Source: Owenia fusiformis
Lineage: Eukaryota > Annelida > Polychaeta > Sabellida > Oweniidae
Assembly: GCA_903813345.2 (NCBI GenBank)
Contig: CAIIXF020000010.1
Span: 23,169,740 to 23,233,739 of the forward strand
Reading direction: 5' to 3'
Length of the DNA stretch: 64,000 bases
Shown here: positions 9,517 through 64,000 of the stretch, in pieces
Numbering within the stretch: the first letter of the stretch is position 1
Layout of the letters: each line of letters starts with the position of its first letter
Position numbers and translations under genes: made by a program
Notes under the pieces: model-generated
The model's database searches: none
What the model was told of the DNA's origin: nothing
The model's input: only the letters and a program-made list of their open reading frames with translations

Positions 9517-9852
9517 TTTTCAGTAGTAAGGAAGAAAGTTAAAATACGCGTAAATTTTTAAACATGTATAATGTATAACTTGCGCGATCGCGATGTAGGT
9601 GTAATTGTAGGTAGCGTGTACTGGATAAGAGATTTAATAAAAAGTATATTCAATTTTGTACTGATAAATTGATTTAATTTACTGTATTGGCAGTTTTTTG
9701 TTTTTTTTATAAATTGGCACTATCTACTTTATTTTATGTAACTTTCTAACTTAACTCTTAAGCTAATTTAACTTCTAACTATAAGCAATCTACTTTAACT
9801 TTATAACATGCTTATTTGAAATAAAGTAACATCTAAGTTAAGTAATGGCTAT

Positions 9853-33800: not shown

Positions 33801-36800
33801 TTAATAGTAAGTGATGTAGAACCTCCAGTTTGAGTGTCATGGGATAAAGTGATACATGTGTGATTGTTGAAATTACAATATTGGCAAAATTGATGAGGGT
33901 AGCCACTGTCCGAATAATGACTCCATTGGTATGCATGAATCTGGAATGTTTATTGAAGCTTCAACACCGACTACCCGTTAATTCAATAGGAAGCAATAAT
34001 CGCCTTAAGCAAAGGTCCCTATAATGTTAACACATTTTTTCCATTATCTGTCCACGGCGATGGTCCATTTAAGAATTGTCTTTACTTATCTTTTATCGCG
34101 TTCCTTATTCACGCCTAACCATCAACAATGTACAGTGGCAAAATATACGGGTGTACAGTTAAGCTGTACGTTATCATATACAGTATTGACGATTTGAAGC
34201 AAAAAATGTGATGTAGGTTTTAAAAACAATATCTAAAAAAGATGATGAAGTATTTCATGTTTGATTTCATGTGCATACTCTTGGCAATATTTTTAGCTTT
34301 CTAATTACGTTAACAGATTCTCGAGCAGTGGTCGAGTTTTTTCAAGGAAATTCCACCTACATAATTGACCGATTGGAAAATGTTGATTATATTCAAATTG
34401 TAATTAATCATGCATTTTCCCTTAGCGTCTGAGAGTGTCACAAATTAGGACGGATTGAGATTTAATAAATATTCACGTTTTGGCTACAATTAGAAAATCA
34501 GAATTGTACGTTGTCAACTCGAGTGTACGTTGTCTATTTAAATGAAATGGCTTGAACAATTATAGTGTTATCTTATTTCGAATTTTGAAATAAAATTATA
34601 GCATTGTTTAAGATTACATTTCATAAATTTCATTAAATAGACAACACTCGAGTTGACAATGTACAATTCTGATTTCTTTAATTATAGCCAAAACGCGAAT
34701 ATCTATTTAAACGTGAATAGTTATTAAACCATCCTTCCTAAATTGTGTAGTTTATAAAGCACATTCTTATAAAAAAAATTAACACTCTCAGACTGTGGTG
34801 GAAAAATGATTAATGAAAATGTAAATATAACCAATATTTTTCAATCGGTCAATTGTGTAGGTGGAGTTACCGAGACAAAAACCCAAGCATTGCTCGAGAA
34901 TTTGCTAACGTAATTAGACAGTTAAAAGTCTTGCCAAGAGCTTGCGCATGAAGTTAAACAAGAAATACTATTCATGATACTCCTCAAATAAATTTTTAAA
35001 TTCGACATCAAAGTTTTTGCTTCAAATCGTTAATACATGACAACGTACAGCCGAACTGTGCACCAGTATATTTTGTCAAGCTGTACTTTGTCGATGGTTA
35101 GGCGTGATTGCTAGCTATTTTGCGTGGCATTTAGGAAGAGCCTCGTGGTAAATACGATAATTTCTCATTGTTAGAAAGTGTTTCATTTCTTAGCTATTAA
35201 CACAAAATCGTTTGCTTGATTTTAAACCTACATTTAGCAAGACAACAGCTCAGTGATATAATCACCTCAGGGTTATGTCAGTATAAAGTCATTATATAGG
35301 ATACTGGGTGCCCTCTTCAATGGTTATCTGTCCCATTCAAAAAAGCTATTACTAGGCTCTGGGCCCATTTGGGAATACTGGGAGGCTCGTACATAGCATT
35401 AAAGTATTAAGATTATGAACGATTGTAACATCATTTGATAAGAGCTTTCCTGGTTAATAATATGACTTTTCTTGGCTGCACTGAACGATTTGCACGATTT
35501 CATCTTGTCGGATGCAATGATGTGTGATTAATTAGGATTCTATCCCGACCTTTCTTATCGCAAATCCTCTACTTGAAATTGGTACATGGTCAAATCATTT
35601 GGGAAATTAATAGCCGATGTTTAGTTAAAGATTTCGTGTAACTTATGTCAAATATGAGTATAACTTTAGTGGAAATTAGACTAACATATTCGTTTACAAC
35701 GGTATCAATGCTCAGTTTTGAATCTAGAACTACGACTGATTTTCATAACAACAGAGATGGTAGAGATGGTAAAAATGAATTAGACAACCTATCAATTATG
35801 TCACTTCTCCTTGGCCGGCGATCAACACATATCTTTGACAAGAGCGATCCACAAGAGCGCATTTTAGTACGTGAGTAGTGTAGAAAACGTGGCTATCATC
35901 GTTAAGAAGGGAGGCTGGCTATCACTGGTGATCCACTCGATTACGCTGGTTACCAAAACGACTCGTTTTGGTAACAAAATGTCGGAACGTCGAAGGTACG
36001 ATTTTTCTCTTTTCCTCATTTAACGCCTTGTAGGCAGAATTCCCAAGACATTTTTTAACACAAACGTGTATCAGTATCATATGTTTAAGAAAATGTACAT
36101 ATTTGCGAACAAATAGTTCAGAAGACAACAGAATTGTCGATTTAATTCCTCACTTAAGTTACATAAACGGTTTTTCGGAAAACAGTTAAGATCTGCACTT
36201 TTAACCCAAACCGTTTATGTAACTTAAGTGAGGAATTAAATCGACGATTCTGTCTTTTGAGCTATTTTTTCGCAATCATGTACATTTTCTAAAACATATG
36301 ATACTGATACAAGTTTGTGAGAAAAAACGTCGTGGGGATTCTGCGTACAACGCGTGAAAAAAGGAAAAAAGAAAAATCGCACCTTCGACGTTCCGACATT
36401 TTGTTATCAAAACGAACCGTTTCGGTAACCATCGTAATCGAGTGGATCACCAGTGGCTATGGAGAAATGAGCGTATTATTGGTGTCTTATGACGGGCGCT
36501 TTAATATCTTGAATCATGTGAGATGAAAAGAACGAGGATGTTTTCAAATGTTCCATTTAGTGTATTTGTAAAGTATCGAATGCGAACTTATCTTGATGAT
36601 GCTTTACAACAGCTGGTAGCTAGATATTAGTATATGTGATTGAAATAAAGTTATCATTTGTGTCATTTATTAATCATAATTCATCCTAAGAAGTTATCAT
36701 ATCTTTCATTTAATAGCCACATAATAAATCGCGAACATTTTCACCAAATAAACCAACTGCATCGGCAAAAACACATTTATCAGTACGTTTGTAGAAATGT

Positions 36801-39800
36801 TAAATTCTCTTTTGCACTTTTCTTATTCCAAACCAACATGGTGCACTTAGAGTAGTAACAGAATAGAATTTCCTAATTATCAATGTAAGAGATTTTATTT
36901 AGTTTTATAAAGGATAAGATTTCCGGCGCTATCGGTGCTTATGGCTCTAGAAAAGATAGATGCAGGGATAATCCCGTGTAAAATATTGATTGACATATCA
37001 AATAGATTTCACATCTTCATTTTAGAACCGTCTATATGTTCCTGGTATATTCAAAGTGTATACACGGTTGGGAAAAGTTCCAGTTGCTCGGATCGATTTC
37101 TCACATAATATTTGGGTCTTCAACACAAATAACTTTATTATCGATTGATCAATTGAATTGAATAAGCTCAAAAAGGCTACAAGCACCACAATTATAATTT
37201 GAAGCATGAATCTTATACTAGAAGTATAACCCAATTAAATAAATGTATATATTCACAATCACAATAATTCCCAGCATATATAGCCGATTGCTATTTACAA
37301 AGGATAACTGATAAGCATTAGAAAGATTAAGGAAAGTAACATCACAGAACACAAATTCCTTCAAATTATCAAAAATGTTCAAAACAATATTATCTTTTTT
37401 CAGAGTCAGAACAGGGCCGTCATGAAAGAAACCTTATAAATGATCTTTTCAAAGAATACAACTACCTGGAAAGACCCGTAGAACAGGAATCAGATGCCCT
37501 TAAACTAGAATTCAGCCTTGCTCTCCAGCAAATCATAGATGTAGTAAGTAAATATTATATGAATTATATTTACGATATTTTGACTTCGCCCTCTTTACCC
37601 GGGATTAGCGCTCAATCAATTTACTGAAGCTGTTTATATGATCAAAGCTTTTGAATGGACTGGAATTCGAAGTGTTAAAAATGTGTGTTTTTCTGATTTG
37701 TATTCCTTTCTAGTAAATTGGTAGAGAAGAACACTGATGGGATACTGTAACTTTTAATTTAAGTTTTATTACACTAATGTTTCAAATTGTTTTGTTAAAT
37801 GTATATTTCTGAGGAAGTATCGACCAGTTTCAAAATGAAATCAATTCTGATTACAGTATGTGTCATTTTTTAACTCAATTATATGTTATAAACATAGCCT
37901 ATAATTTTCTGTGTTAGAATGAAAAAACAGAGGCACTAACATCAAGCACATGGTGGACAATGGTAGGTTACAGAAGTATTAATAATAGATGGTGAAAGCC
38001 ATGCTGCGAAATATCAAATGTAACAGCTCGAGTGATATATCTTTAACAATATATTTTGAAAAGCATGAATATTTTATTGAAATCGTCATTCTGATATATC
38101 ATGTGAATCATACCTCCCTGAGTGAAAATATTGTGGTAGATATACGCTGTGCTTTTAAATTTGGTGATTTTATTTCTAGAGGTTCTTGGGACACGTGTAC
38201 CTATTCTATAAATGTGTCACATGTTTATTGTAGAAAAGCACAAACCAAGTTACAACGTTTGCTTCACACGTTAGCTTTATCACAAACACAAAAAATTGTG
38301 CCTCCTTGTAATTATTGCAATTTCCTTGATATAAACAATTCAGCTACGATCGGAGATGATAAATCACGTTTGATACATTAGTTTATATTTGTGGCTCAAC
38401 GAGCTCAGTTTATGAAGAAATCTTCTCGGTAGAATCAATGATTGTGGAACCTTGGTATTAGGTGATTGCACACAATGGCGATATTCATTATCAGCTATTA
38501 GGGAGTTTAAGCTTGCAATGTTTTTCACAACCTAAACGTGAACGGAAAATATTTAAGCGATGCATTTGTATGAGCGATTGGCCAAACGTATAGGTTGGCG
38601 TTTCGATTTAATATGCAAGCTTAAACTCCCTATCCACTTCCACCAAACCATTGTCTTGCATCAAATCTCTAGAGCCCTTCTCACTTGTGAAGGTGAGACC
38701 TATGCGGTATCAGAGGCGCCTGAGGCAAGACGATTCTATTTTCGGGGCTACTTTGCTTGATCTAGGAGTGCTAGTCCTGAATTTCGACGAGTGGCCCATT
38801 TATTTGGAGATTAAACGTGCACAACATAATGGACAGTGATTCATCATTTTGTGCTCATTTTAATATATCTTTAATTAAGGTAGATTTATTCTTATACTGT
38901 AGATGTTGTTTTTGTTTAGGATGAAAAGAATCAGTATCTCACCACAAGTATCTGGTTAACTTATGTAAGTATACAAGCACTTAATGTCTAGAAACAGTGA
39001 AACCCCACAGGAGCAACATATCTGAAAACAAACTAACACTTACTATAAATCATTCATTAAACTTAGATGCCTATAGAATTACATATATTACTGCTAAACA
39101 TCTGCATGACAGGCAATGTAGTAATCATAATGATTTACTGATCATTCCCGTCCTATCCGTTTTGCGTCATTTTATATTTGGCTCTTGGTGTCTTGTTTAT
39201 TGAATTTGCTTTATTCGATTATCTCATCATTTACAAGATCATACTTATTTCTACCACTTGTTTTTCTTTATATTATTTCTTATTTTTTGTCATTTTATCT
39301 CATTTTTGCACGCTGTCGGTGTTCTTTTTATCAGTTTATAGTTCTTTTATAGCCAGCGCCTATGTAGAAAATGAGTCAACTTTATCCTAGAGAAGCAGTA
39401 TTAATACAGAAGTAAAACTTTAATGTGTTGATTATGTTTTCACTGTTTATAATAAATGTTGTCTGAAACACGGGTCAAACCAACTGATAATGTTTTATTA
39501 AAAACCAATTTTACTTTGAACATACTCCTTGTCAGTCACACCCTGTTGAAGCTCTATCTGATGTAGTACCACCTGGTGGATTGGAATGTAATAAGGCGAG
39601 ATATAAAGTAGCAATTGGACATACCGTGTCCACCTCCGAGCGGTATACATCTGATTAATCTTCTAACATCAAATAAAACAACCATATTGCTAGATAACCA
39701 GAAAGCTTGTATTTCTTTATTTAGAACATAAAAAGAAGTGTTTGTATAATTTGAGTTGGTGAAGATGCTACTTTATGATGTTCTCCAGGCCTGGACTGAT

Positions 39801-42800
39801 TACAATTTGAAATGGAATTCGTCAGAATACGGTGGTGTCCAGAGTATTCGACTTCCTGCCAAAAAGGTTTGGACTCCAGATGTTCTCATGTATAACAGGT
39901 AATCTTTCCCAATGTCTGATGTTAAGTAACGGAAAATTAGACCATTCTATCTTTTGATTCCAATACGTCCAATCAAGTTCTTCAGCGTATCTTTAAATTC
40001 CGAATTGCAATCCCAGATCTACTACTCCTTAATGGGATTTCTAACAATGCTAGCGTCAGAATTAACATTAATAAATTGTTTCTAGAATGTCAGGCTAATA
40101 ACAAAGGTATAAATTGTTGTCGTTCGTTCTGATTATATAACCAGGTCATATTTTACACTGCCACTGTCACCCAAATCTATTTCAGATTGAAAAACATTTA
40201 ACATCCTTTTCAGTGCGGACGAAGACATAGACAGTAAATTCCCTACTAATGTAGTGGTGTACTCAAGTGGGCTGTGTAACTGGATACCACCGGGTATATT
40301 GAAATTTTTGATAATACGATATAATCTCTCTCAAAATATAAGTTTAGTGGAACACAATTTACATCAGTCATTATGTTTTACACAAGTACGTGTCTAAAGT
40401 ACATATTTAAGAATCACTCAATAAATACTCATAGAAACAATTTATTAGAGTAAAAGCTTCATCGCCTTTTACAGTCACGTATTGATATTTTTATCATTTT
40501 GTTTTAGGTATCTATATAAGCTCATGTAAAATCAACATTCGCTGGTTTCCATTTGATGACCAGTTGTGCACAATGAAGTTTGGCTCATGGACGTACGATG
40601 GGAGCAAAATTAACCTTACTTTGCTTGGGACAGCCGGTAATACAGGGGAAGGTGACATCAGCACATATCAGCCCAGTGGCGAATGGGACCTCATAGGTAT
40701 TAGTGGCATATATATCATTGTAAAACCCAACCCCATTTCCCCCAAAACAATAACAAAATCTTAAAGCTGGAAACTACAATCTCGATTTATTATGATAAAA
40801 ATTGAATATATTATTTTATAAAAACATCAACTTTGATAGAATTACTTTTGCTCATAACGATTTATTGTGTTCGCCGTTTTTGTCCCACCAAGAATACGCA
40901 ATCAAAACGGAAATAGATTCAGCTTCTGCTGGGCAAGCATTTTTAAGGTTTATAGAAAATAACATCTAAATCGAAGTTTGTGGATGCTAATTGTTGTTGA
41001 GTGTTTTTGGTATTTTAGGATTAACGTAAGAGGTTTTTTATTTCAGGTTGGGCAGCATTACAAAAATGATAAAAAGTGAATAAAAAGAAAATTTATCAAG
41101 GTTGTCCATATAAAGTTCACAATAGTTTGCAGATGTTTCTACCAAGAACAACATGAATTTAAATAAAATATTTTTGACACGTGCATTTTCCTTAATCTTC
41201 ATATATACAGGGAAATAGAACACCGTTGCTCATTGAAATTGGTCACTTCACGAAAAAAAAGTTAAAAACATAAGTTAGTTGTAACATCTACAATATTTAA
41301 ACGAACGTGTCTGTACAAGAAGAGTACAGGGGTTGAACTAGGATGTGCTAAGGTGAGAAAGTCTCTAAAAATGAACTGAAAAATATGGTCCTTCGGAATA
41401 ATGTAGGGATGTTCAGATCTCGAGTTCAGATGTGTCTGGTTGATTAATTTCTGTGGAACGAATTATATGGTTAACTTGATAATTGTTGAGCCGATTGTTC
41501 TTGAAAATGTAAAAAAGTAGAATAGTTCCATTCATTGAAATTTCAGAGCACATTGAAATCTGTCGAATCAATGTTTTTACAAACATTCCATAATTGTGAG
41601 CAACGGTATGCTATCAACACATTCAATTATTTTACTATTGACAATTTAAAGTGACATTGAATATTGCATGATCTTGGAAACCTCCAATTAATGATGCTTA
41701 ATCGAACACACTTACAGACTTAGGTTGCAAGTATTTTAGCATTTTAGGAGATGGTGCCACCAGACTTGGGGTATTTGTAGGAAGGGATTGTTTAATGCAG
41801 ATCATCAAATGACACTTAAAATGCCAGCAAGGATATCAATTGGAATCAAATAGATGGAAAGGTGTTATGTTGGATGAAATGAGTCTGTTTCACTTCATTT
41901 CCACTTCCATTCAAATCAATCAGCCATGACTTGTTTTCTCTGAGATGCATGTTTTGAACGTATGTCTTGTTTAATTATCTCATTAATAGCTTTATCAGTT
42001 TCTCCCAACAGACTTTTTGCTGCCATCTCGCCGCTTGTACGTTGATTGAAGCAAGCTGTATTGTGTAAGATTGAATTGTGTATTAAGCAATTTCATTTAA
42101 TTTCATTGTTGATCTCAAAAAGTTTTTACAAGAACAGCGTTTTAGTTCATCCCGACATGACATGCCAGTATTGTTATTGCGCAATTTCACGTTGAGTATA
42201 TACTGGAATAGTAACTGCTACCATGAGTTCAAAATTTCATTTGATCCAATATATAAACAAATTTCAAATAGATTTATGTAAATGCTATTAGATAAAATGA
42301 GGTATGATGAATTCAAAGAAAAATATTTCTCCCAACTCCTAGAAATTCTTACAAATATCTCAAAACCTAACTATATTTTTCAATTAATGTTGACATAGTT
42401 AATATATAAAATATACCCTCCCCGCCAAACATTTAGCAACCGGAAGTTGACATTTGAACCACGTGTTAAAGACTATTAAATATTGTAATGTGTTGGTAAT
42501 TTCAACAAATTTATCAAAATCACCCAGTAATTCGAACATAAATGATAAATAACACGCTAACATGGCAACTTCCTGTTACTGGACATATGGAGTCGTGTAG
42601 TTAGCTCATTTTGCGACTTTTGTTTCAGTCAATTATTACCCAGTATGCCTTTCTTTCATAAAAAATGTTAAGTTAAGATGATTATTTTTAATACATTTCA
42701 GGTGTCTCTGGTATACGAAATGTAGAAAAATATGACTGCTGTCCGGATCCCTACCTGGATATCACATATACAATTAATATTCGACGCAGGAAATTATACT

Positions 42801-45800
42801 ACATATTCAACTTGGCCATTCCATGCTTCCTGCTTTCAAGCCTTACATTACTTTGTTTCTATCTTCCACCGGACAGTGGCGAGAAACTAACATTTGGTAG
42901 GTCATGAATAGTGAAATGTAGTACATTACATGTTACCCATCTTGTCGTTTTCTTTTGTATTTGTATAGGTGTGACTGCTATACGGAATATAGAAAAGTAT
43001 GAATGCTGCCCGGAACCGTATATTGATATAACTTTTACAGTCCATATTCGCCGACGTGTCCTCTACTACGCGTTCAATCTCATTATCCCCTGTGCCCTAC
43101 TGTCTTCCATGGCACTTCTCACATTCTCCTTGCCGCCCGACTCTGGCGAAAAAATCTCTCTAGGTAGGTGTGGGGCTTTTATTACATGACTTGATCTAGA
43201 TGTGTGGGTGATCGAGCTGCATTGGTGATGGCTGCTGGCTACTATATTGGTCTTTGACTTTGATAGAATAGTTCATACCTCGGTCTGGGAATGTAACGAG
43301 GTTGCACAGTCTGAAAGTAATTGCACATTTTGACTAGAGCTCCGGATGGTAGTTCTGGGTGTGGTAAAGGTACGAATGGCTTATGGGCAGTAATGTCGCA
43401 TGCTGCTTATGTTGTCATCATAATGTCTTACTTGGAACCGAAGTCCTTGTGATGTTGTAAAATCTTGTGAAATGTGTGATAACTGCTTACTTTGACTTTT
43501 TAGGGACTAAGCGTTACTACTAGTATATACTTGATTGATATACATGTACAGTTCCCTAGCGAAGTAGACAGTGAATGTTGCGTGACTTATAGAAATAGCA
43601 GGCACTTACATCTGTTATTTATGTAACGATAGAATAGAACAATTATATTTTCCTCTTCACCCACGTCGGTAATAAACTGCCAAACGCATCAGCACATCAA
43701 TGAACGCCCAACTATGACGTAATTGTGTCAGTAAGTGGCTAGGGGTAAAGGGAAGCAGTCTGACCTTAATTTGCTTGATACAATAGCAGGTTAGGTTGGT
43801 TTTTGGCTTACTTTTAAAGATACCTGAAAATCAAGTTTATTTAAGGGTCGGAAGTGTGTTGTCAAAACAAATTAACTTCATGCTTTAGCTTTCATTCTGT
43901 GTTGATGTTTTGACAAATACGTACTAATGTTCTTTTCGATTATAACTAAACCAATATAATTAACCTGCAACCTTGCCTGTTGTTTAGTCATTAATAATGT
44001 ATATGTAGTTCGTACTAACAACACGACAATTGAAATTATAAGGTTACGCTAAATAAGCAATCAACAGTGCCATTATAAACAGAAAAATACAAATCTTTTG
44101 TATATTTCGAGATAGTCAGTTTAATGTGCAGCAAAGATGTGACCTAATTATGAAAGTTATTAATTTTGATGTCATACTTCAAAACTAACCTGGCACAAAA
44201 GTATAAACACGTGCTTAAGCCATACATTCGTTAGCTAAATCGAAAAATGTCGAACTGCTTTTTGACAGCAATAGATAAGCCAAAATCTTTGAAAATCTAA
44301 ATTGAGGAACATTAGGGCATTCTGAGCACGTGTTACAAATATGAACGAGATCGGCCACATATTCTGCGAGTATTGTCAAAAAAACAGTATGCCAAAATAT
44401 CCAATGGAAAAAATGGAAAAGTCACTTATTTCGGTCTAAACGAAGCTGTTTCCAAGTAGACAGATACTTTCGATTCTTTTTTCATCCATCCTTTCTCGTT
44501 CAAACAGTTTTCGATAAATTACTTACCACTACAACTCAAAAGTATCATTAATCCTTCCAAACTGAAATTTCGAACAGAACGGATTTGGATACAGAGAACA
44601 ATGAAACAAGCCTATGGACCTGACACACAAACAAGCGTTTTTGATCTCCTGGAAAGCTGGCACAGACGCTATGGATGTCTCATTGCGCAAGTCTGATGTT
44701 GGAATTTTTGTCATGCATTTGTCAATAGTCAAATAAGATTTAACCGATATCTTTTATATTTGTTCCTATTGCTTAATGATACCCTTAAGCTACTTTTACG
44801 AAAATTTTACAATAATAGATATTTTCAAAATCAGTTGTTCTGCTAAAGCCTGTGTCGTATATGTATGTGTTGATACCAGCGACATTTGATGTGCGCTAAG
44901 TCATCACAACTAGTTATAATAATGATGCGATGTATGAAAATATTGCTTATTATTTCTCAAAAACAGCTTAAATGATGATTTTTGGGTAAAAAAAAACAAC
45001 GTTTTAATTTGTTTGTGCTAATATAATTATATTAACATTGATTGCAGCACATACAGAGCATCGATTGCGTTGATATTTTTCAAACTACATAAAAAATATG
45101 TTTGACACCAGCCCTTAAAAGGGCGATGCTACATCTGTAGATATGTGTTACCCATGCAATGAAATTCTTTTTCTATGCATATAACATTTGTCTTATATTT
45201 TGTATCCTCCACCACACTGGTTAAATTAACATTGCCGATGCATCATTTGTTTAAGATTTCGCCAAAAAGTCCCCTTAAGGTTACCTTTTAAATGTCAGAC
45301 AATGAAAACATAATGTTATTATACAAAATAATGTTATTTTTGTGTTGGATTTAGGTTTTGCTGTCCAATGTTTTGTATCCTCCAAACATTAAGATTTCAG
45401 CAATGCCCATAATTGATTTCAAAGAATTATTTCCAGAAATGAGACTAATGCAATGTAGTATTTTTAAATGATTGTTATAGTTTATTAGTAAATTGAATAT
45501 GTTGAGCATGTGTTGGAGGATACAAAACATATGGACATTATAAAACCTGTTATTTTTTAATGAGTATGACATGCCAAACAACCCCTTTTGAGAGCTGGTC
45601 GGAAACATAATTTATTAATCAGTTAGAAATTATCGACGGACTTGATGCTTAATTAGTTATGTTGTCCGAGTTTCCATTGCAAAATTAGATTTTTGTCCAA
45701 AAATCACCATTAAAGCTGTTTTTAAGAAATAATAAGCAATCTTTTCAATATATATCGCATGGTTATTCTAAACATTTATGTCGGCATCACGATAGCACAT

Positions 45801-48800
45801 ATAATGTCCTTGATATCAATACACATGGCGCAGGGTGTAGTAGAATAGCAGAATTCGTGGAATTTAAAAAATATTAATTATCGTAAATTCGCCCTTATAT
45901 AAATTTTTCAATAAATTCGATTATTTTCTCAGCAGTCTTAATGCTGAGACGTAAATGCTTGTGGAAATGCGGATCATTTTTTGGGTCACCCAATATAACG
46001 TTTGGTCTCTGATATGTGTTTGTGTACTTTAAGAGCTATACTACCTTTGATTGATTGATTGATTGCAACATTTAGAAAGAATACGTCATAACCTTGTGAT
46101 TTCAACTGCAAAATACAAATAAATCTAATCGAGCATTTAAATTAATAGAGCATTCAAAATGTATAACTATAAAAGAAACTCAATATAAAGGGTAACACAA
46201 TAATGCAACCATCTAACTTCAGGATAACATAATTTATCAGTCATGATTTTTTGTGAAAATAGAGTGTTGGATGCATGGATCAGTGGTGTACATTAATATC
46301 ATCACAGACTTAGAGAACAGTGGGTACATATATGATATAATACGATATAATTGATTATAAGTACGAATACTGGCAAAGGTAGTTTTTGCAATTTGTAATA
46401 AAATAATTTTTTGAACGGATTTTGACGATTCCATACAAGAACATGGTCGATCATATGGAAACAATATTTTTCTATAAGTTGCAAAGTCTTTGATGACATA
46501 CAGTACATTTATATTGTATACTGCTGTTTCACACATTCAACATTCTATACAAACCCATTCAAGAAGCTTATGTCATACTAGTATTGAGAGTAATTCCAAA
46601 ATTACAGGTTTACATTTTTGAGTCACCCTGTAGTATTCAGAATATGCAATATTTAGAACCCCAAATAGTTCAAATAAGTTATTCCTTATTATTATGAAAT
46701 GATGAAATGCGTAAATAAAAATGCTTAATATTAAGAGAATTATAAAGGAATGGAAATCCATTATGAGTCATTGAATGTTGTTTCACGCAATTTTGAGATC
46801 TAGAGTAGTAGGAGTTTTGTTGTGGTTTGTTTTCAGGTGTCACTATATTGTTGTCTCTGACAGTCTTCCTCATGATAGTAGCTGAGACAATGCCAGCAAC
46901 GTCCGATGCAGTCCCACTAATTGGTAAGCATAAGTGCATTTTGCCTGTATACTCCTTGTGTTACTTTGAAATGATCACTTGTATTTTCACGTTCCAACTA
47001 CATTTGATGCATTTCCTTTACAGTATTCCCTTAATCCTTTGCATTTCGTTCTTATAGATAGTTTGAATTATCTAAATACGTCTTTACTAAAGTGTCAATA
47101 GAAAGTATTATGTACATGTAAGTACATGCTGTACATGACAGATGAAGTTGCATTCAGATAGCCATTAGGTAATATTTTTGAATTGTTGAATACTAGTATT
47201 ATATTTCTAAAATATGTATGTCAGCAGAAGTATTACACTGTTGGTATTCATTGGATATGTATTTATTTTGAATTGCCATTTAAAAAGGAGGATTGTGTTT
47301 TCAGGGATATATTTTGCGTGTATTATGATGGTGTGTTCATTGTCAGTTGTGTTTACTGTACTAGTTCTCAACTACCACCACCGCAATCCAGAAACGCATA
47401 ATATGCCAAAGGCTGTAAGTATTATGCAGATAAAGTTATGCATGTTACGCTTAACCCTATAATGCAAGCTGACTCCTCAAATAATATCATGAATTTAACA
47501 AACAAAAATCAAGGCTGATGTGCTTTAATTCATGATTTGCTCATGTGTTTTGTCAGTGATGGAGTATAAATGTTGACCCTTGTGATTTTTGTAACCTTTC
47601 TAGACCGGCAGTATACTTCAACGTTTTAATCATCTTCAGGCCTTGTGTAATTTAAAAAACGTTTGTACGTTTTATTTCATTACTTTGAAAATCTCTATTT
47701 TCACTACCCTTAAATCGTGATGGTTAACCCCACTTTGTTGAAAAACTAGATTTTGAGAAGTCAATTTGTAACCATCGAATGTTTTCCCAATGTACTTGTA
47801 TCGGGGGCGTGATTAGCATATTGGCAGATGGGGAAGTATTAAAAAATGTTGACAGACGAAAAAAATAAAACTACAATTACCTATTTTTAAATAACATGGC
47901 GGTTTTTGTAATGTATCTCCTGTGTACTCTACGCGTTTCCCCCTGATATTAGGGAGTTTAAGCTTGCAATGTTTTTCGTAACCCACTGGCGGATCCGGGG
48001 GGGGGGCTGCCCCCCCCCCCTTGGGTGGGCCCAGAAAAAAATAATTGGTCCCAAAAAACTTTTGGGCCAAATAAGGCCTTATGGCCTCAAAAAGTGAGCC
48101 TTTTTGGTCATAAATGGACCTTTTAAGGCCATATTTTTCAATTTTAGGCCAAATTTTAAAGAAAATGGGCCTCAAAATTTCAAAGATTGGGCCTACTTTG
48201 GGATTTTAGGGGCCCAAAATTTTTTTCCGAACGTTTTTTTTCTCTGACAGCGAATTTGGGCCCCCCTCCCCCTTTGTTGGTTCCCAGATCCGCCCCTGTA
48301 ACCTAATCGTGAACGGAAAATATCTAAGCGATACATTTGTATGGGCGATTGGTCATACATATAGGTTGGCGTTTCGATTTTAAATGCAAGCTTAAACTCC
48401 CTATTATCAAAAGGAGAAATAGATGTCATTGAAAAAGTCAAGAACTTTTCTTTCGAATCAAGGGACTTTGATCACATCTGTATGATTTCAGGTGAGGGTG
48501 ATAATATGTAAGTGGTTGGCGTGGATGCTTCGCATGGAGAGACCAGGCCATGATATAACAATAAGAAAAATAGTGCACGATGCAAGAATTGCCAAATTAA
48601 AGGAGGTTGAACTGCGACAAAAATCCTCCAGAAGTTTACTCGCGAATGTGCTAGACTTAGACGATGATCTTTGTAAGATTGATCGAATGGACAGGATGAA
48701 TTCAGTGCCAAATTACGCGTCCATAAAAATAGAGGAGAACGGCACCCATATCGGATACACACCTCTGGCAAACTCACCCACGGGAGGTCACTGTCTACAT

Positions 48801-49001
48801 AAAAGTGAGCTTAACGCAATTCTGCGAGAACTTAAAGTTATGAATAGGAAAACAAAGGAGAATGATAAATACACTTCAGAGGCGAACGATTGGAAATTTG
48901 CAGCTAGGGTCATAGACCGATTATGCATCTGGATATTTTCAATATTCACTTTGGGGTCAACTCTCGGAATTTTTCTCTCTGCACCTAATCTATTTTCATG
49001 A
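18691..49001 (+). CDS. Nicotinic acetylcholine receptor alpha subunit (alpha7-like), whole gene
   Basis: A ligand-gated cation channel subunit of the Cys-loop family, acting in the plasma membrane as part of a pentamer. Ten coding exon positions (18691-18817, 37404-37543, 3a/3b, 39789-39898, 40214-40293, 40508-40696, 7a/7b, 46837-46923, 47305-47414, 48492-49001) join in frame into 1,593 nt, 530 residues. Seen: signal peptide, Cys-loop with 13 residues between cysteines, loop A WTPD..MYN, loop B GSWTY, loop C CysCys (hence alpha type), GEK before TM2, MPATSD after TM2, and a TM4 ending in LSAP. Exon sizes follow the vertebrate alpha7 plan as I remember it. Exons 3 and 7 each occur twice. Introns total about 28.5 kb and hold many MITEs. 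Exact subtype (alpha7, alpha9/10 or invertebrate-specific) is not decided. Confidence 0.93.
20056..20905. mobile_element. pogo/Tigger-like MITE carrying a nested element
   Basis: Termini CAGTTAAACCTGTCTTAGCG (20056) and, inverted, CAGCAAAACCTGTGTATA (ending 20905) have the pogo-type look and are flanked by TA (20054-55; 20906-07). Only about 215 bp belong to this element; the rest is the nested 20086..20720 insertion. No transposase. Confidence 0.7.
20086..20720. mobile_element. Nested element with TIRs of 16-bp tandem repeats
   Basis: The left end is four tandem copies of ACAACTCGTACCCAAG (first copy begins GTCAACTCG), and the right end is three inverted copies ending CGAGTTGAC. The interior is AT-rich and non-coding. 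It interrupts the pogo-like MITE. Terminal repeats built from short tandem units recall foldback elements. Confidence 0.75.
20979..22259. mobile_element. Foldback element, 1.28 kb
   Basis: Outer inverted repeats are CTTGAATGGTAGTCACGTTA plus GATCATAGTTTA...GGATAATAGGAGTTTG at 20979-21030, with the inverse at 22209-22259. A central palindrome around 21645 has arms of about 200-300 bp (CCTCTGAAGTTTGAAAAATG, GACTATAAGATTG, TGATGTTTTT). Flanking portions of the two arms have diverged. No intact coding frame; the minus frame 21631..21993 lies in the palindrome. Confidence 0.75.
22610..26970. repeat. Duplicated block, copy B of the nAChR 5' region
   Basis: Three collinear segments match the region around exon 1: 22610-22960 with 17390-17720; 25536-25660 with 19040-19150 (AAGTGCAG.GTTCTACGATGG); and 26525-26970 with 19220-19560 (AGTAGTAGT.TATAAAATGACAGT, CAACAGGCCACCTG, AAATGCAGCTATCTTGC). 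Copy B is longer, with added sequence between 23.8 and 25.5 kb. I could not recognise an intact second copy of exon 1 in it. Confidence 0.65.
27412..27493. repeat. 41-bp tandem duplication
   Basis: AGGCTAATCAAAT(A/C)GACAAT..CCATAAAA.TAGTATTCAC occurs twice head to tail, a simple local duplication in intron 1. Confidence 0.85.
28141..28244. repeat. GC-rich perfect hairpin
   Basis: A 20-bp perfect stem: CGGCGCCCGGCCGATTGAGT (28164-28183) pairs with 28203-28222, around a 19-nt loop that itself can pair (ATTTTGTTCAAAAT). An outer stem (CACATTTG..CGAT / ATCG..CAAATGTG) extends the palindrome to about 104 bp. Its GC-rich stem stands out from the AT-rich surroundings. It is probably a tiny foldback element. 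Confidence 0.85.
28579..30195. repeat. Three ~480-bp tandem units with hairpin border
   Basis: The left border is a palindrome (GACTCCAGATT/AATCTGGAGTC, 28579-28603) and the right border repeats AAATCTGGAGTC at about 30182. Inside, three units share TTTTGAGATATGG.GTC.G (28915, 29391, 29871; spacing 476 and 480 bp), AACCAAATTTC.ATCC.ACTTC and AAATTTGGACACCAAAATG. Internal coding is absent. It may be a repeat-bearing transposon (Helitron-like borders are possible but not shown). Confidence 0.75.
30196..34109. other. Intronic sequence with no recognised feature
   Basis: Within nAChR intron 1. A small hairpin ATGGGCTCTA / TAGAGCCCAT lies at about 33299-33325. A stretch at 32800-33200 looks faintly like decayed coiled-coil coding sequence ([12 protein letters not shown]) with many stops, too weak to call. 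Confidence 0.5.
34110..35106. mobile_element. Long palindromic foldback, 997 bp
   Basis: CACGCCTAACCATC at 34110 is inverted at 35093-35106, flanked by ATT on both sides (34107-34109; 35107-35109). The arms continue nearly to the centre (about 34590): GTACAG..AAGCTGTACGTT, ATTTGAAGCAAAAA, AATTGACCGATTG, CTCTCAGA, GTTGTCAACTCGAGTGTACG. Each arm is about 480 bp with moderate divergence. No coding. Transcribed as nAChR pre-mRNA it could form a long hairpin. Confidence 0.9.
35924..36454. mobile_element. Palindromic foldback, 531 bp
   Basis: ACTGGTGATCCACTCGATTA at 35924 is inverted ending at 36454. Flanks GGCTATC (35917-35923) and GGCTATG (36455-36461) are the probable target duplication. The arms share GTTCCGACATTTTG/CAAAATGTCGGAAC, AAATGTACAT, ATCAGTATCATATG and GTTACATAAACGGTTT, meeting near 36190. 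No coding. Confidence 0.9.
37404..37543 (+). CDS. nAChR exon 2
   Basis: 140 bp, acceptor TTTTTTCAG, donor GTA|GTAAGT, phase 1 to 0. Encodes [30 protein letters not shown] and [13 protein letters not shown]: the conserved N-terminal helix and first strands of a Cys-loop receptor. Vertebrate alpha7 exon 2 is also 140 bp, from memory. Confidence 0.95.
37918..37962 (+). CDS. nAChR exon 3a (alternative, loop D)
   Basis: 45 bp, phase 0 to 0, encoding [15 protein letters not shown] between a TGTGTTAG acceptor (weak pyrimidine tract) and a GTAGGT donor. It aligns residue for residue with exon 3b, keeping E-K, L-T, S, W and T (7 of 15 identical). The retained Trp is the loop D Trp of the complementary binding face; the next residue is Trp here and Leu in 3b. 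Inclusion of both exons would keep frame but insert 15 residues in a fixed-length strand, so mutual exclusion is expected. Confidence 0.85.
38501..38630. mobile_element. 130-bp MITE with TA target duplication
   Basis: GGGAGTTTAAGCTTGCAATG at 38501 is inverted at the right end (ATGCAAGCTTAAACTCCC, ending 38630), flanked by TA on both sides. It lies in the intron between exons 3a and 3b. A second copy is at 47952..48401. The Tc1/mariner superfamily is likely from the TA duplication. Confidence 0.9.
38920..38964 (+). CDS. nAChR exon 3b (alternative, loop D)
   Basis: 45 bp, phase 0 to 0, encoding [15 protein letters not shown]. Acceptor TTTTTGTTTAG and donor GTAAGT are both strong. It is the closer match to the family consensus (DEKNQ.LTT..WL), so it is probably the ancestral-like form. 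It lies 957 bp downstream of 3a. Confidence 0.92.
39789..39898 (+). CDS. nAChR exon 4
   Basis: 110 bp (phase 0 to 2), from TTCTCCAG to CAG|GTAATC. Encodes [20 protein letters not shown] followed by [16 protein letters not shown], including loop A with its Tyr. The size equals the conserved 110-bp exon of alpha7-type genes. Confidence 0.97.
40214..40293 (+). CDS. nAChR exon 5
   Basis: 80 bp (phase 2 to 1). Encodes [20 protein letters not shown] then LCNWIPPG, which includes loop E (complementary face; the Cys in GLC sits where alpha7 has its Cys). Acceptor TTTTCAG, donor G|GTATAT. Confidence 0.95.
40508..40696 (+). CDS. nAChR exon 6: Cys-loop, loops B and F
   Basis: 189 bp (phase 1 to 1). 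Encodes the Cys-loop [15 protein letters not shown], loop B FGSWTYDG, and a long loop F segment ([20 protein letters not shown]) ending GEWDLIG. From memory the alpha7 exon is 168 bp; the extra seven codons fall in loop F and include an NLT sequon and a Gly-rich stretch. Confidence 0.95.
40697..42701 (+). other. nAChR intron 6
   Basis: 2.0 kb, AT-rich, with no second exon-like motif or transposon end that I recognise. Confidence 0.6.
42702..42896 (+). CDS. nAChR exon 7a (alternative: loop C and TM1)
   Basis: 195 bp, phase 1 to 1, acceptor ATTTCAG, donor GTAGGT. Encodes loop [17 protein letters not shown] (vicinal Cys pair of alpha subunits), the RRRKLYY pre-M1 region, TM1 ([20 protein letters not shown]) and [11 protein letters not shown] at the TM2 entrance. 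Same length and phases as 7b, with about 46 of 66 residues identical by hand count; TM1 and loop C residues differ. Confidence 0.95.
42897..42968 (+). other. 72-bp spacer between exons 7a and 7b
   Basis: Begins GTAGGT and ends in a T-rich acceptor TTTGTATTTGTATAG. It is short compared with all other introns of the gene (310 bp to 18.6 kb), close to the smallest spliceable size in many animals, which may help prevent 7a-to-7b splicing. Confidence 0.85.
42969..43163 (+). CDS. nAChR exon 7b (alternative: loop C and TM1)
   Basis: 195 bp, phase 1 to 1, donor GTAGGT. Encodes [25 protein letters not shown]1 ([20 protein letters not shown]) and [11 protein letters not shown]. The last segment and loop C are closer to the alpha7 consensus than those of 7a. 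Splicing 7b instead of 7a changes loop C acidic side chains, the pre-M1 charge (K to V) and many TM1 side chains while leaving the frame intact. Confidence 0.95.
43164..46836 (+). other. nAChR intron 7
   Basis: 3.7 kb. Contains a foldback-like element at about 44875-45812 and a repeat near 44097-44145 (TTTGTATATTTC..AGATAGT, ATGTGCAGCAAAG.TGTG) that recurs at 62778-62820. A mariner-type end, GTCACCCTGTA, lies at 46622-46632. I found no alternative TM2 exon by eye. Confidence 0.5.
44875..45812. mobile_element. Foldback-like element in intron 7
   Basis: ATTGCTTATTATTTCTCAAA plus AACAGCTTAAATG.TGATTTTTGG at 44941-44990 is inverted at about 45690-45742, and weaker pairing extends outward (GACATTTGATGTGCGCTA near 44880, inverse near 45795). 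The interior carries the motif TTTGTATCCTCCA twice direct (about 45197, 45372) and once inverted (about 45512). Ends approximate. Confidence 0.55.
46837..46923 (+). CDS. nAChR exon 8: TM2 pore helix
   Basis: 87 bp (phase 1 to 1). Encodes [20 protein letters not shown] then [10 protein letters not shown], the pore-lining TM2 with Leu at the gate and a Glu at its outer end, typical of cation-selective alpha7-like subunits. Confidence 0.97.
47305..47414 (+). CDS. nAChR exon 9: TM3
   Basis: 110 bp (phase 1 to 0). Encodes [20 protein letters not shown] then [17 protein letters not shown], i.e. TM3 and the start of the cytoplasmic loop (the [10 protein letters not shown] motif). Acceptor TTTTCAG, donor GCT|GTAAGT. 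Confidence 0.97.
47952..48401. mobile_element. Second copy of the TA-flanked MITE, interrupted
   Basis: The same termini as 38501..38630 (GGGAGTTTAAGCTTGCAATG and CTTAAACTCCC), TA on both sides, and closely matching interior (CGTGAACGGAAAATAT, GGTTGGCGTTTCGATTT). It is split by an element at 47984..48298. It lies in nAChR intron 9. Confidence 0.9.
47984..48298. mobile_element. Nested 315-bp element with GGCGGATC ends
   Basis: Starts CACTGGCGGATCCGGGGGGG and ends, inverted, as CAGGGGCGGATCTGGGAACC. TAACC is duplicated on both sides (47979-47983, 48299-48303). The CAGGGGCGGATC-type terminus is common in hAT-like MITEs, but a 5-bp duplication does not fit the usual 8 bp. The interior repeats AAGGCC and TTTTGGGCC motifs; no coding. 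Confidence 0.8.
48492..49001 (+). CDS. nAChR exon 10: cytoplasmic loop and TM4
   Basis: 510 bp including TGA at 48999-49001. Encodes the intracellular loop (starts [20 protein letters not shown]), an amphipathic segment before TM4 ([18 protein letters not shown]) and TM4 ([17 protein letters not shown]), ending PNLFS. Compared with alpha7 the loop is of ordinary length. Confidence 0.97.
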
Positions 49002-59160: not shown

Positions 59161-59643
59161 TCATTACTTGGAATTGTCGTTGTCATTGATTAACTAGAGC
59201 CTGCGTAAGAAGCTGGGGTTGTTGGAGATTTAGGATGGATTCCTTAAAGAATTATTACGACTGGGTTATCCACGGTTGGGAATTGATTTGCGATTGCCTT
59301 GTGGCTTTGCCATGATTTGGGTAAGTTGATGAGTGTAGCCGTAGTAACCAACGTTGATATTCTCTTCAACACGGTTGGCATTTGATTTCATTTTGGGTCA
59401 CTGTTATTCTATCACTTGGGTTTATCTCTGTCAATATTAATAATTGTAGGTGTTCGTATTTTAGAGCTAGATTGATGTCCCTAATGTCTTAGGTTGTGTC
59501 GTTAACATTTATGTCCAGGTGCACTATTCGGAGTTATTCAAGATTTGGATAAATCTCGAACGAGGGGTAAAACGATATTTGGTTGTCTTAGATTCGATTA
59601 GGAGAGTCAACTTCTATTCATATTTAATTGTATATTTCAGAAA

Positions 59644-59833
59644 ATGGCAAAATATTTCAAAATCCAGAGCCGGTTGAACGGCATGTGCTTGGACGTCCCA
59701 GGAGGTTCCCAGGATCCCGGTACTCGGGTGTGCTTGTGGTCCGAGAACGACGGCGACAATCAGCTTTGGTATGAAGACAAATTCAGACACACAATTAGAT
59801 CCAAGTGTAACGGATTCGCACTGGACTTCGACG
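59644..59833 (+). CDS. Lectin exon 1, domain 1 first half
   Basis: 63 codons plus one base (phase 1 donor GAC G|GTAAGT). It carries the first QxW motif (DNQLWYE) and a Cys-rich start (NGMCLD). Confidence 0.88.
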
Positions 59834-62091
59834 GTAAGTCACAAACACCACCATTTACTCCAAGAGGATTTACAGATTCAGATGCTGAATGAAGACATTC
59901 AAATGCAATGTATGAAGACATTACACATCTTTTATTCCCAGGTGAACGCTTGACTGTCAATCCCTCAGACTCAGACAACCCACTGCAGGGATGGTGTATC
60001 GATGGAGATAAAATCGTCACTTTTATTGACCCTGGTCGATGCATAGATGTCGCTGATTGTTGCACAGATGAGGGTGCTCAGCTCACAATCTGGGATTTCA
60101 ACGGGGGCGATAATCAATTATTTGACTTCCCATCCAAGTAAGTTTTCTCAAAAATGTTTTCTTTAGCTTATTATGATATACAATAGGCTCCTCTCTCTCG
60201 CAATGGAAATGCTAATAGCATTCTCTTTTGACAAAAAGTAATATATCTTGATGCAAATTAAAGGGGGGATGTCGCCTAGGTTTCTCCCCCAGACAATCAG
60301 TGATCTCCCACTATAATTGCTCATACAATATCTCATCTACTTAAGATATATCTTGAGAACATATTGAGGGCACAGAATCGCCGATATATTGAGAAAATCA
60401 AAAGAGCAACCATCAGAACAACCACCTGTCGGATAAAACACAATTAGTCGAAAGTAACATACAACTGTTTTGTCTATATTATGAAATCCTTGAAAGTATT
60501 AAATACTAAGTGTTAAGACGAAAGATAAAAAGAAATGTGTATTGGTTCAAAATTGAAAAAAAATGTTTTTCAAATTCATTTTGACTTTATTACTAGCCAG
60601 TAGAAATAAGTAATTTCTACGAACAATAATCATATTGATCGCGTTACGAATTATAAATTAGTTTAATTAAGCCTCAAAGTTGGTAAGTAGATAGACCAAC
60701 TTCTTATACATCTTTTAGAGCCAATACATCAGGGAGTTACTAGTACTCTAATTGTGCTTTTATCAGACATTGCACCCTTAATTTTCAGCGGAGATGATTG
60801 GTTCTTCATAAAATCTCGCCTCAGTGGTTTGGTGTTAGACATAGATGGCGGTAACACTGACCCTGGAGCTAAAGTTATCCAATGGGACCAGAAGGACAAC
60901 CCAGGCAGCAGAGACAACCAACTGTGGAGGTACGACTGGGAGACAAACTGTATCAGAACTAAAATGAATGACTTCTGCTTAGATATTGATGGTAATTACG
61001 ATATCTTCCAATATTGTTAGATAGTAATGCAAGCACAATTATTTCCGTCATTGAAGTATCACATAACTGATGATTCAATGAATTAATTACTTTGGTTGAC
61101 GTATCTCTTGGCTTACCAGCGTTAACGTTGGCGACAGTGGTTCCCGCAGTGGTTTGAAATAAGACTTGTAGCCCCACTGTAGCAGTCTCTCACAAAGTGT
61201 TGAGCATTAATAATACATTAATTAATAAACATAAAATGTAATAATATGATTTTAGGGGATGATATTATCTTGAATCCCTTCGACGGTTCACCAAGCCAGA
61301 TTTGGGTGCCTTCAGATGACAGAATCACCAACTTGGAGACTGGCAAAGACTTGGACCTCGCTGACTGCTGTAGAGACGCCGGGGGTAAAATCTGTTGTTG
61401 GGACTACAATGGAGGAGATAACCAGAAATGGGATTTCGAGTTTGTGTACGTATTTGTGATTGATCTTACAATGTTTTGATCATATGTCACTTGCTGGAAT
61501 TACACCAGAAAAAACGTTAAACGCGCCATCCTGATTACACCAACATTTCTAAAGCGCCTTACGAATTTTATTTTGGAATTACACCTGTCATTTCTAGAAC
61601 GCCTTTCGTGCACTTTTAACGATGTAGATATTGGAGAATATTCAGCAGATGTGTACATCTACTACAATAAATGTATTCTTTTAGCATCTAAGAGAAAATG
61701 TAACCGAGACTTTTGCCAGTGGTGTGAACTTACTTTCAATTTTTCGATATAATTTAATGACCTACATGTATTGCATTTTTGGGTTATATCTATCATTTCC
61801 TGTATTTTTGCGGTGGCCCAAATGTGAAGGTAACGAAATGACATAATTTATCAGTTGTTTCAATGTTCAAAGTCACCCATGAAGCCATTCTCCTATAGAA
61901 AATTACACAAGAGATTCGAGTCTTGATCAACTCCAGACATCATTCACCAATCATCCTATCTATGTTGGTAAGGAAGGCGGAAACTATGGATTATGATAAA
62001 TAAAGATATATGCTTTAACGACATGTGTGAATCTTTTCATAGATACCTTCCAATATTAACATGTGATTACTTGCATTTCAGTGATGAATAG
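59644..62091 (+). CDS. Two-domain R-type (ricin-B-like) lectin
   Basis: Exons 59644-59833, 59942-60137, 60789-60991, 61256-61445 and 62082-62091 join into 262 codons plus stop. Two tandem beta-trefoil domains of about 128 residues each are visible. Each has the carbohydrate-binding signatures of R-type lectins (CBM13): KIQSRLNGMCLDVPGG / DNQLWYE and DNQLFDF in domain 1, and FFIKSRLSGLVLDIDGG / DNQLWRY and DNQKWDF in domain 2. No signal peptide: it starts MAKYFKIQSR, so it is cytosolic or exported without a leader. There is no enzymatic A-chain-like domain. An acceptor AG just before the ATG (59639-59640) implies an upstream 5' UTR exon. A poly(A) signal AATAAA lies at 62106 or 62337. Role inferred: sugar binding, often innate defence. 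Confidence 0.88.
59942..60137 (+). CDS. Lectin exon 2, domain 1 second half
   Basis: Starts in phase 1 after TTATTCCCAG, encodes GERLTVNPSDSDNPLQGWCI and DNQLFDF (QxF in place of QxW), and ends in phase 2 at AA|GTAAGT. Confidence 0.85.
60789..60991 (+). CDS. Lectin exon 3, domain 2 first half
   Basis: Acceptor TTTTCAG. Encodes GDDWFFIKSRLSGLVLDIDG through DNQLWRY to FCLDID and ends in phase 1 at GAT G|GTAATT, at the same domain position as the exon 1 donor. Confidence 0.88.
61256..61445 (+). CDS. Lectin exon 4, domain 2 second half
   Basis: Encodes GDDIILNPFDGSPSQIWVPS, DLADCCRDAG and DNQKWDFEF. The donor is taken at GT|GTACGT (phase 2); an alternative donor at TTT|GTGTAC would end the protein a few residues earlier. 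Confidence 0.85.
62082..62091 (+). CDS. Lectin exon 5, last residues
   Basis: After TTGCATTTCAG, completes Val, then Asp, Glu and TAG (62089-62091). Only ten coding bases; supported by acceptor quality and frame only. Confidence 0.6.
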
Positions 62092-63676: not shown

Positions 63677-63845
63677 CTAATAGATGTACAATGTTCCATC
63701 ATGTGGTCCAACATATCCCACTGCAACCAGGATAACATCAACTAATGTCCATACGCCAAGACCACCAAAACTGAATAGCTTCCCTATTCCTTCTCTCCAT
63801 TGGCCAAGATAGAAACGATCCGCTCCAAATCCTCCAAGAGTTACA
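63677..63845 (-). CDS. TM2D3: TM2 domain-containing protein 3-like, last exon
   Basis: Minus-strand terminal exon after acceptor TTTTCAG (63846-63852 on +). Encodes VTLGGFGADRFYLGQWREG, GKLFSFGGLGVWTLVDVILV, then AVGYVGPHDGTLYIY and stop. This is the C-terminal part of a TM2 domain: the end of the first transmembrane helix, the DRF motif in the short loop, and the second helix. The GLG.WTL.DV and GYVGP.DG.LYI ending fits TM2D3 (Drosophila almondex, linked to Notch signalling) better than TM2D1/2. The earlier exons lie beyond the right edge. Confidence 0.85.
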
Positions 63846-64000
63846 CTGAAAACAATGCTACATATTATTACTATCATTGTCAGGGTCATTAGTGAGCTCT
63901 TTTAAGTCTGGCTTACTTACTAATTCATTAATGTTCTCAATAATCCACAAGTATTATCTAACAATTAGATTAAGGCTCCATGATTAATTCTTATTTTCAT

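What the first reader, a model, noticed from the sequence alone, without database searches (positions are those of the whole stretch)
42702..43163. Duplicated exon 7a/7b: alternative loop C plus TM1 in a nicotinic receptor
Seen: two adjacent 195-bp exons, both phase 1 to 1, both with intact splice sites, each with the vicinal Cys pair (YDCCPDPY and YECCPEPY), pre-M1 region, TM1 and GEK. A 72-bp spacer separates them. Including both would add a second loop C and TM1 and destroy topology, so they must be used one at a time. The swap changes the principal face of the ligand site and the whole first membrane helix at once. I do not know of a described mutually exclusive pair at exactly this exon; insect alpha6 alternatives, as I recall, are at exon 3 and near TM2.
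Basis: partly seen in the sequence, partly recalled or inferred. Interest (0 to 1): 0.9.

Follow-up and report, generated by a model that had tools for sequence, protein, structure and literature searches.

The report
Swappable exon in worm nicotinic receptor
A marine worm's nicotinic receptor gene carries two versions of one exon, so alternative splicing could swap part of the acetylcholine-binding site, a membrane helix and the first pore residues in one step; similar doubled exons turn up in protein models of another worm, of insects and of crustaceans.

Summary
Window 42702-42896 (7a) and 42969-43163 (7b) are two intact 195-bp phase 1/1 exons of one alpha7-like nicotinic receptor gene of the annelid Owenia fusiformis. 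They share 45/65 residues, with second codon positions 85% and third 40% identical, so both copies were kept by selection. The exon encodes loop C, pre-M1, TM1 and M2 positions 1'-3', all three of which differ. The gene has a second pair, 3a/3b (loop D). Of 68 exon-7b-like matches in the genome, no other two lie within 1 kb. Of 185 related proteins listed by two capped searches, 16 hold two such units 65 residues apart: Owenia, Capitella, several insects, two decapods, a barnacle. Two barnacles have models with either unit alone. One origin or several is unresolved. Mutual exclusion is likely but not shown: one deposited Owenia protein holds both exons, another 7b alone; 7a alone was not seen. 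Papers I looked into describe alternative exons 3, 4 and 8 of nicotinic genes, none at this exon. Verdict: a new variant of a known kind.

The parts
35708..35870 (+). first exon as used in deposited protein P0001 (no obvious signal peptide by eye); tblastn did not find the P0002 first exon in this window
   Evidence: tblastn of the P0001 and P0002 N-termini; donor GTGAGT read by eye
37404..37543 (+). exon 2
   Evidence: AG / GTAAGT
37918..37962 (+). exon 3a (45 bp, loop [16 protein letters not shown])
   Evidence: AG / GTAGGT
38920..38964 (+). exon 3b (45 bp, loop [16 protein letters not shown]); the one used in P0001 and P0002
   Evidence: AG / GTAAGT
39789..39898 (+). exon 4
40214..40293 (+). 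exon 5
40508..40696 (+). exon 6 (Cys-loop, loop B)
42702..42896 (+). exon 7a: loop C, pre-M1, TM1, M1-M2 loop, M2 1'-3' (LTF)
42897..42968 (+). 72-nt spacer; UnAy branch-point candidates at +32 and +39 (a third match at +8)
42969..43163 (+). exon 7b: the same module with M2 1'-3' ISL
46837..46923 (+). exon 8 (TM2), single copy
47305..47414 (+). exon 9 (TM3)
48492..49001 (+). exon 10 (intracellular loop, TM4, stop)

Best explanation
This is one alpha7-like nicotinic receptor subunit gene whose seventh exon was tandemly duplicated, and whose third exon was duplicated too. The spliceosome joins exon 6 to either 7a or 7b and then to exon 8. Each transcript thus gets one loop C, one pre-M1 stretch, one TM1 and one set of the first three M2 residues. 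Choosing between the copies retunes agonist affinity, gating coupling and the pore entrance together. With exon 3 there are up to four receptor isoforms. Shown: two intact, selected, frame-neutral alternative exons in one gene. Inferred: one-at-a-time use and the functional difference. Proposed enforcer: the 72-nt spacer, whose likelier branch points lie only 32-39 nt from the 7a donor, disfavours 7a-to-7b splicing by steric hindrance. A double product is in frame and could be made at a low level, but would probably be non-functional.
For: Intact matching exons with third-position divergence and second-position conservation, pS 0.75 against pN 0.24. Flanking exons are single copies. All four spliced isoforms read open to the stop. 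The 3a/7a isoform carries both receptor domains, PF02931 and PF02932. P0002 shows exon 6-7b-8. Among 10 listed barnacle models, 7 hold unit 1 alone (P0128, P0130, P0134, P0135, P0138, P0156, P0171), 2 hold unit 2 alone (P0123, P0131) and 1 holds both (P0011); P0134 and P0171 lie on other contigs than P0011 and may be other gene copies. The spacer is the shortest of the ten gaps between neighbouring exons; the others are 214-3673 nt. In a model of the double protein the 7a stretch has 10-residue pLDDT means of about 24-40 and 7b about 37-72, against about 67-80 for exon 7 in the 7b-only control; both models are weak.
Against: No RNA evidence was available here. P0001 contains both exons. No 7a-only protein was seen; the cluster of P0002 has 4 members, of which only the representative could be read. 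A search with the exon-7a stretch scored 27 candidates and gave 1 hit, P0001. Outside the barnacles, every listed arthropod protein with unit 2 also holds unit 1. The steric argument rests on distances recalled from other systems, and short introns are spliced in many animals (recalled). Inverted repeats that might regulate the choice were not convincing.
Confidence: 0.82

Rival explanations
1. Both exons are often included together, giving a receptor-like protein with two loop C/TM1 modules that acts as a regulator or dominant-negative subunit.
For: P0001 contains both. Sixteen listed proteins from several lineages contain both, and outside the barnacles unit 2 was seen in arthropods only in such double models. 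Inclusion of both keeps the frame. Tandem inclusion of alpha6 exons 3a and 3b is reported in Bombyx (PMC2045683 passages).
Against: Double models may be artefacts or minor forms: by my motif count, 39 of 185 listed proteins hold two or more TM2 exons, Drosophila alpha6 P0089 among them, although Drosophila alpha6 exon 8 is listed as mutually exclusive (PMC8505678). The Owenia annotation used Capitella protein hints. An extra TM helix would invert what follows (inference). The structure model does not place 7a.
Confidence: 0.08
2. Exon 7a is a silent or decaying copy; only 7b is used.
For: 7a has a longer branch than 7b. No 7a-only protein was seen. The polypyrimidine tract of 7a looks weaker than that of 7b (by eye).
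Against: Open frame, intact sites, loop C Tyr and Cys residues and GEK kept, near-saturated synonymous change with pN 0.24. Random-change simulation keeps an open frame in 5.4% of runs and at most 21/65 residues.
Confidence: 0.1

Closest known systems
Insect alpha6 nicotinic subunit, mutually exclusive exons 3a/3b and 8a/8b/8c (PMC1919356, PMC2064938, PMC6393475 passages; PMC8505678 section 6)
   Same: Alpha7-group gene with tandem in-frame alternative exons; the exon 3 pair is at the same place (15 residues, loop D).
   Different: In insect alpha6 the second set is exon 8 (TM2). Here exon 8 is single and exon 7 (loop C to M2 3') is double.
Insect alpha4 exon 4/4' (PMC2045683, PMC2064938 passages)
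   Same: Alternative exons within a ligand-binding-domain module.
   Different: Loop E / Cys-loop region, another gene.
Capitella protein P0003 and insect and crustacean alpha7-type proteins with two exon-7 units (P0004-P0008, P0010-P0013, P0019, P0026, P0043, P0049, P0055)
   Same: The same exon is double, units exactly 65 residues apart, and one copy has Ser and the other Thr at M2 2' in each of the 16 proteins, Owenia P0001 included.
   Different: Which copy has Ser is reversed (annelids Thr/Ser, arthropods Ser/Thr). Homology of the pairs is unresolved. They are database models; I saw no description in print in the listings or in the papers opened.
Human CHRNA7 (alpha7)
   Same: Alpha7 chains are the best 13 solved-structure matches of the 7a piece and of the exon 6-7b-8 piece; exon 7 is also 195 bp (recalled).
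   Different: No duplicated exon 7 (recalled).

Membership tests
alpha7-like nicotinic receptor alpha subunit | Neur_chan_LBD and Neur_chan_memb domains | tested here: met
   PF02931 227 bits, PF02932 186.2 bits on the 3a/7a isoform without its first exon
alpha7-like nicotinic receptor alpha subunit | Cys-loop with 13 residues between the cysteines; vicinal Cys pair in loop C | tested here: met
   [19 protein letters not shown] / YECC
alpha7-like nicotinic receptor alpha subunit | closer to alpha7 than to other subunits | tested here: met
   the best 13 solved-structure matches are alpha7 chains for the 7a piece and for the exon 6-7b-8 piece; many listed protein hits are named alpha-7, alpha6 or acr-16
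alpha7-like nicotinic receptor alpha subunit | signal peptide | tested here: inconclusive
   first exon of P0001 shows none by eye; the first exon of P0002 was not found in the window, and its genome search did not complete
mutually exclusive exon pair | adjacent homologous exons, same length and phase, own splice sites | tested here: met
mutually exclusive exon pair | both copies under protein-level selection | tested here: met
   codon-position pattern and pS/pN
mutually exclusive exon pair | transcripts with each exon alone | tested here: inconclusive
   7b alone in P0002; 7a alone not seen; no reads available
mutually exclusive exon pair | no transcript with both | tested here: inconclusive
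   P0001 has both, possibly hint-driven
insect alpha6-type splicing system | exon 3 pair (45 bp, loop D) | tested here: met
   3a and 3b
insect alpha6-type splicing system | exon 8 (TM2) cluster | tested here: not met
   one exon 8 found in this gene; two in an Owenia paralogue

The most novel reading that the evidence does not exclude
Exon 7 has been an alternative module in alpha7-type receptor genes since early protostomes: one ancient pair, kept in annelids and in many arthropods, that switches loop C, TM1 and the Ser/Thr residue at M2 2' as one unit.
Probability: 0.25. Interest if true: 0.8.

Novelty: new variant of a known kind. Interest (0 to 1): 0.6.

Why it matters
The alternative exons of nicotinic receptors described in the papers I opened change one side of the binding site (loop D), loop E / Cys-loop, or the pore helix (TM2). 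This exon would change the principal binding face, the coupling region, TM1 and the pore entrance in one splice. It gives natural chimeras of an alpha7-type receptor, made by evolution, for separating binding from gating. The same exon is double in models of insects and crustaceans, so work on a single cloned alpha7-type form there may describe only one splice form (inference). Whether the pair is one ancient feature or arose repeatedly can be tested with existing genomes.

Tried and rejected
Assembly artefact or two genes: judged unlikely; exons 2, 4-6 and 8-10 are single and no other gene parts were found between the copies.

Hidden extra copies of exon 7 or 8 in the window: nothing convincing. 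The exon 7 hits were the two exons and then short weak matches (whose output was cut in the middle of the exon 7a list; one search scanned every ungapped frame for exon 7b).

Common origin of the Owenia and Capitella pairs: first thought likely, because 7a groups with Capitella unit 1 (83/85, 74/86, not strong). Trees without exons 3 and 7 then placed the Owenia gene with Ridgeia and two unnamed sequences (100/98) and, when added, with its own C1 paralogues too (100/98), and rejected Owenia plus Capitella as one clade (p 0.0013; I chose this test). Held-together tests on exon 7: an Owenia-only pair is not rejected (p 0.371, 0.365), nor a Capitella-only pair (p 0.171), nor all first units as one clade (p 0.32), nor annelid 7a with arthropod unit 2 (p 0.449), nor all arthropod second units as one clade (p 0.387). 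Annelid 7b copies with arthropod unit 2 were rejected (p 0.004). Owenia 7b with the C1/Ridgeia-type units gave p 0.041, and 7a plus 7b with them p 0.065, which sits badly with the gene tree. Informative sites in the four-copy comparison split 3, 1 and 2. I left it open.

RNA pairing that could enforce the choice: inverted repeats in 40697-46836 gave nothing specific; 25 of 38 pairs were shown.

Counting exon 3 copies by a motif failed (the pattern matched nothing), so exon 3 counts come only. A script failed and was corrected. An earlier count gave approximate exon borders; those and later replace them.

Genome-wide counts of exon 4 and exon 8 clusters, and the place of the P0002 first exon, could not be obtained.
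Full report
What is there. The window comes from Owenia fusiformis. The spliced 3b/7b protein of the window is identical over its full 487 residues to P0002, a deposited Owenia protein. The genome held here has 498 Mb in 525 contigs, with the window on C10; the published assembly has 505.8 Mb and 12 chromosome-scale scaffolds (PMC9977687 passages). On the plus strand lies an alpha7-like nicotinic receptor gene with exons 2 to 10 at 37404-49001. Exon 7 is present twice, 42702-42896 and 42969-43163, both 195 bp, phase 1 to 1, with AG and GT sites and a 72-nt gap. Exon 3 is also present twice, 37918-37962 and 38920-38964, both 45 bp. All four combinations read open to the stop.

Real, not chance. 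The two exon 7 copies share 45 of 65 residues; the next best ungapped 65-residue frame in the window shares 14 with 7b. Identity is 43/65, 55/65 and 26/65 at first, second and third codon positions. pS is 0.75, near saturation, and pN 0.24. In 5000 simulated copies with 60% of bases changed at random, 5.4% kept an open frame and none kept more than 21 of 65 residues. Both copies have therefore been held as protein.

What the swap changes. Of 20 differences, 9 fall in the 27 extracellular residues around loop C, 1 in the 4 pre-M1 residues, 7 in the 24 of TM1, 0 in the 7 of the M1-M2 loop, and 3 in the 3 residues of M2 positions 1' to 3'. The loop C tyrosines, the vicinal cysteines and GEK are kept in both. 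The region borders are my own cuts, made by alignment to human alpha7. The prime numbering and the idea that 2' lines the narrow part of the pore are recalled.

How common in this genome. A genome search with exon 7b gave 68 matches at E up to 0.001 among 77 candidates scored. Reading the list, only 7a and 7b lie within 1 kb of each other.

Relatives. Two protein searches listed the best 120 of 2671 and of 2626 hits, together 185 different proteins. The second search used a profile of four two-unit proteins and so favours such proteins. Sixteen of 185 have two loop C/TM1 units, each time 65 residues apart: Owenia P0001, Capitella P0003, two termites (P0004, P0005, P0013), Anabrus, Rhodnius, Schistocerca (P0008, P0026), Macrobrachium, Amphibalanus, Panulirus, Nilaparvata and Timema (P0043, P0049, P0055). 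In each of the 16, one copy has Ser and the other Thr at M2 2'; the order is Thr/Ser in the two annelids and Ser/Thr in the 14 arthropod proteins. These are not independent: at least two lineages, at most a handful. Of 10 listed barnacle models (Amphibalanus 5, Pollicipes 5), 7 hold unit 1 alone, 2 unit 2 alone and 1 both; two of the 7 lie on other contigs and may be other gene copies. Outside barnacles, unit 2 was seen in arthropods only together with unit 1. The alpha7-type models of Cryptotermes and of Schistocerca also differ in exon 3, and Macrobrachium, Rhodnius P0133 and Capitella hold two exon 3 units in tandem. The listed chelicerate, myriapod, nemertean, brachiopod, Helobdella and Ridgeia rows have one exon 7 unit. 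Only cluster representatives are seen, so absence there is weak.

One origin or several. In a tree of exon 7 units, Owenia 7a groups with Capitella unit 1 (83/85; 74/86), as if the duplication were older than the split between Oweniida and all other annelids (that branching is stated in PMC9977687, passages). But trees built without exons 3 and 7 group the window gene with Ridgeia, two unnamed sequences and, where included, its Owenia C1 paralogues (100/98), and a window-gene plus Capitella clade is rejected (p 0.0013; a test chosen). So the Owenia and Capitella genes are not simple orthologues. Either the pair is older than that gene split and was lost several times, or the exon was doubled more than once. 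Tests on 64 or 65 columns do not decide: an Owenia-only pair is not rejected (p 0.37), nor a Capitella-only pair (p 0.17), while 7b with the units of its gene-tree neighbours gets p 0.041.

Are the copies exclusive? Indirect evidence only. P0002 has 7b alone; P0001 has 7a and 7b in tandem. The Owenia annotation merged RNA-seq with Augustus predictions guided by Capitella proteins, and states RNA-seq support for 99.29% of transcripts as a whole (PMC9977687 section 18). A Capitella protein is itself double, so P0001 may be an artefact or a real minor form. Double models also occur for the TM2 exons: 39 of 185 listed proteins have two or more by my motif, Drosophila alpha6 P0089 among them, although Drosophila alpha6 exon 8 is listed as mutually exclusive (PMC8505678 section 6). 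A structure prediction of P0001 left the 7a stretch without confident structure (pLDDT block means about 24-40) and 7b at about 37-72, while exon 7 in the P0002 control had about 67-80. Both models are poor overall (mean pLDDT 59.0 and 66.0, 36 sequences). The 72-nt spacer puts likelier branch points 32-39 nt from the 7a donor. Steric hindrance at such distances is recalled from vertebrate genes.

What is known in print. A review table lists for Drosophila splicing: alpha4 exons 2 and 4, alpha5 exons 5 and 9-11, alpha6 exons 3 and 8, intron retention in beta1, and 'Not Reported' for alpha7 and beta2 (PMC8505678 section 6). Passages in PMC2045683, PMC2064938, PMC1919356, PMC6393475, PMC3644170 and PMC5111602 agree on exons 3 and 8 of alpha6, and PMC2045683 adds Bombyx alpha8 exon 7, which there means TM2 and TM3. 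The cockroach alpha7 paper and the salmon louse paper hold neither 'exon' nor 'splic' in their main text (PMC7221154, PMC7419010; term counts). The lophotrochozoan survey holds 'splic' once, in its reference list, and its passages shown describe no alternative exons (PMC6896357, 12 of 20 places shown). The tick paper passages describe a tripled exon in Rdl only (PMC9219234). Nine searches of the held open library on receptor exons (a tenth was for the Owenia annotation) were seen as listings, several of them capped; I saw no sign of alternative copies of the loop C/TM1 exon there. Most subscription papers and all bioRxiv preprints were out of reach, so it may be in print elsewhere.

Second finding in the family. 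One C1 paralogue, at C1:13780814-13791085 on the minus strand, has exon 2 twice, exon 4 three times and exon 8 twice, in order and with AG and GT at each of these copies (read by eye), while its tandem neighbour shows one of each. A gene on C9 has exon 8 twice. Tandem exon doubling is thus recurrent in Owenia nicotinic genes, in ligand-binding-domain and pore modules.

Verdict. It is a new variant of a known kind. What is missing is RNA evidence and a clear history.

Noticed in passing
L014 and L024 (G000 C1:13780814-13791085, minus strand): Paralogous Owenia nicotinic gene with tandem exon copies: exon 2 x2, exon 4 x3, exon 8 (TM2) x2, with AG/GT sites at these copies by eye. Up to 12 combinations on paper. 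The neighbouring gene (L015, L025) shows single copies.
   Followed up: partly
L016 4714-4800 and 5479-5568 (G000 C9): Another Owenia nicotinic gene with two TM2 exons, 17/30 alike, both with AG/GT sites.
   Followed up: partly
window 37918-37962 and 38920-38964: Exon 3 pair; 3a is unusual (STWWTM instead of the common NxWLxL). Its sites are intact, but P0001 and P0002 both use 3b.
   Followed up: yes
window 5857-6156 and 9867-10166: Identical direct repeats 4010 bp apart around minus-strand gag/pol-like open frames (7146-9519, by eye): looks like a young LTR retrotransposon.
   Followed up: no
window 216-1955: Tandem array with a 43-bp period (29 overlapping matches of a 300-nt reference), open in frame over long stretches.
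   Followed up: no
window 59602-61479: Open frames with ricin-B-type beta-trefoil lectin matches, plus strand: 59602-59889 and 60691-61017 tested; 61222-61479 looks alike by eye.
   Followed up: no
window 63677-63901, minus strand: Open frame with a TM2-domain match (PF05154).
   Followed up: no
the 16 two-unit proteins: One exon 7 copy has Ser and the other Thr at M2 2', in opposite order in annelids and arthropods.
   Followed up: partly
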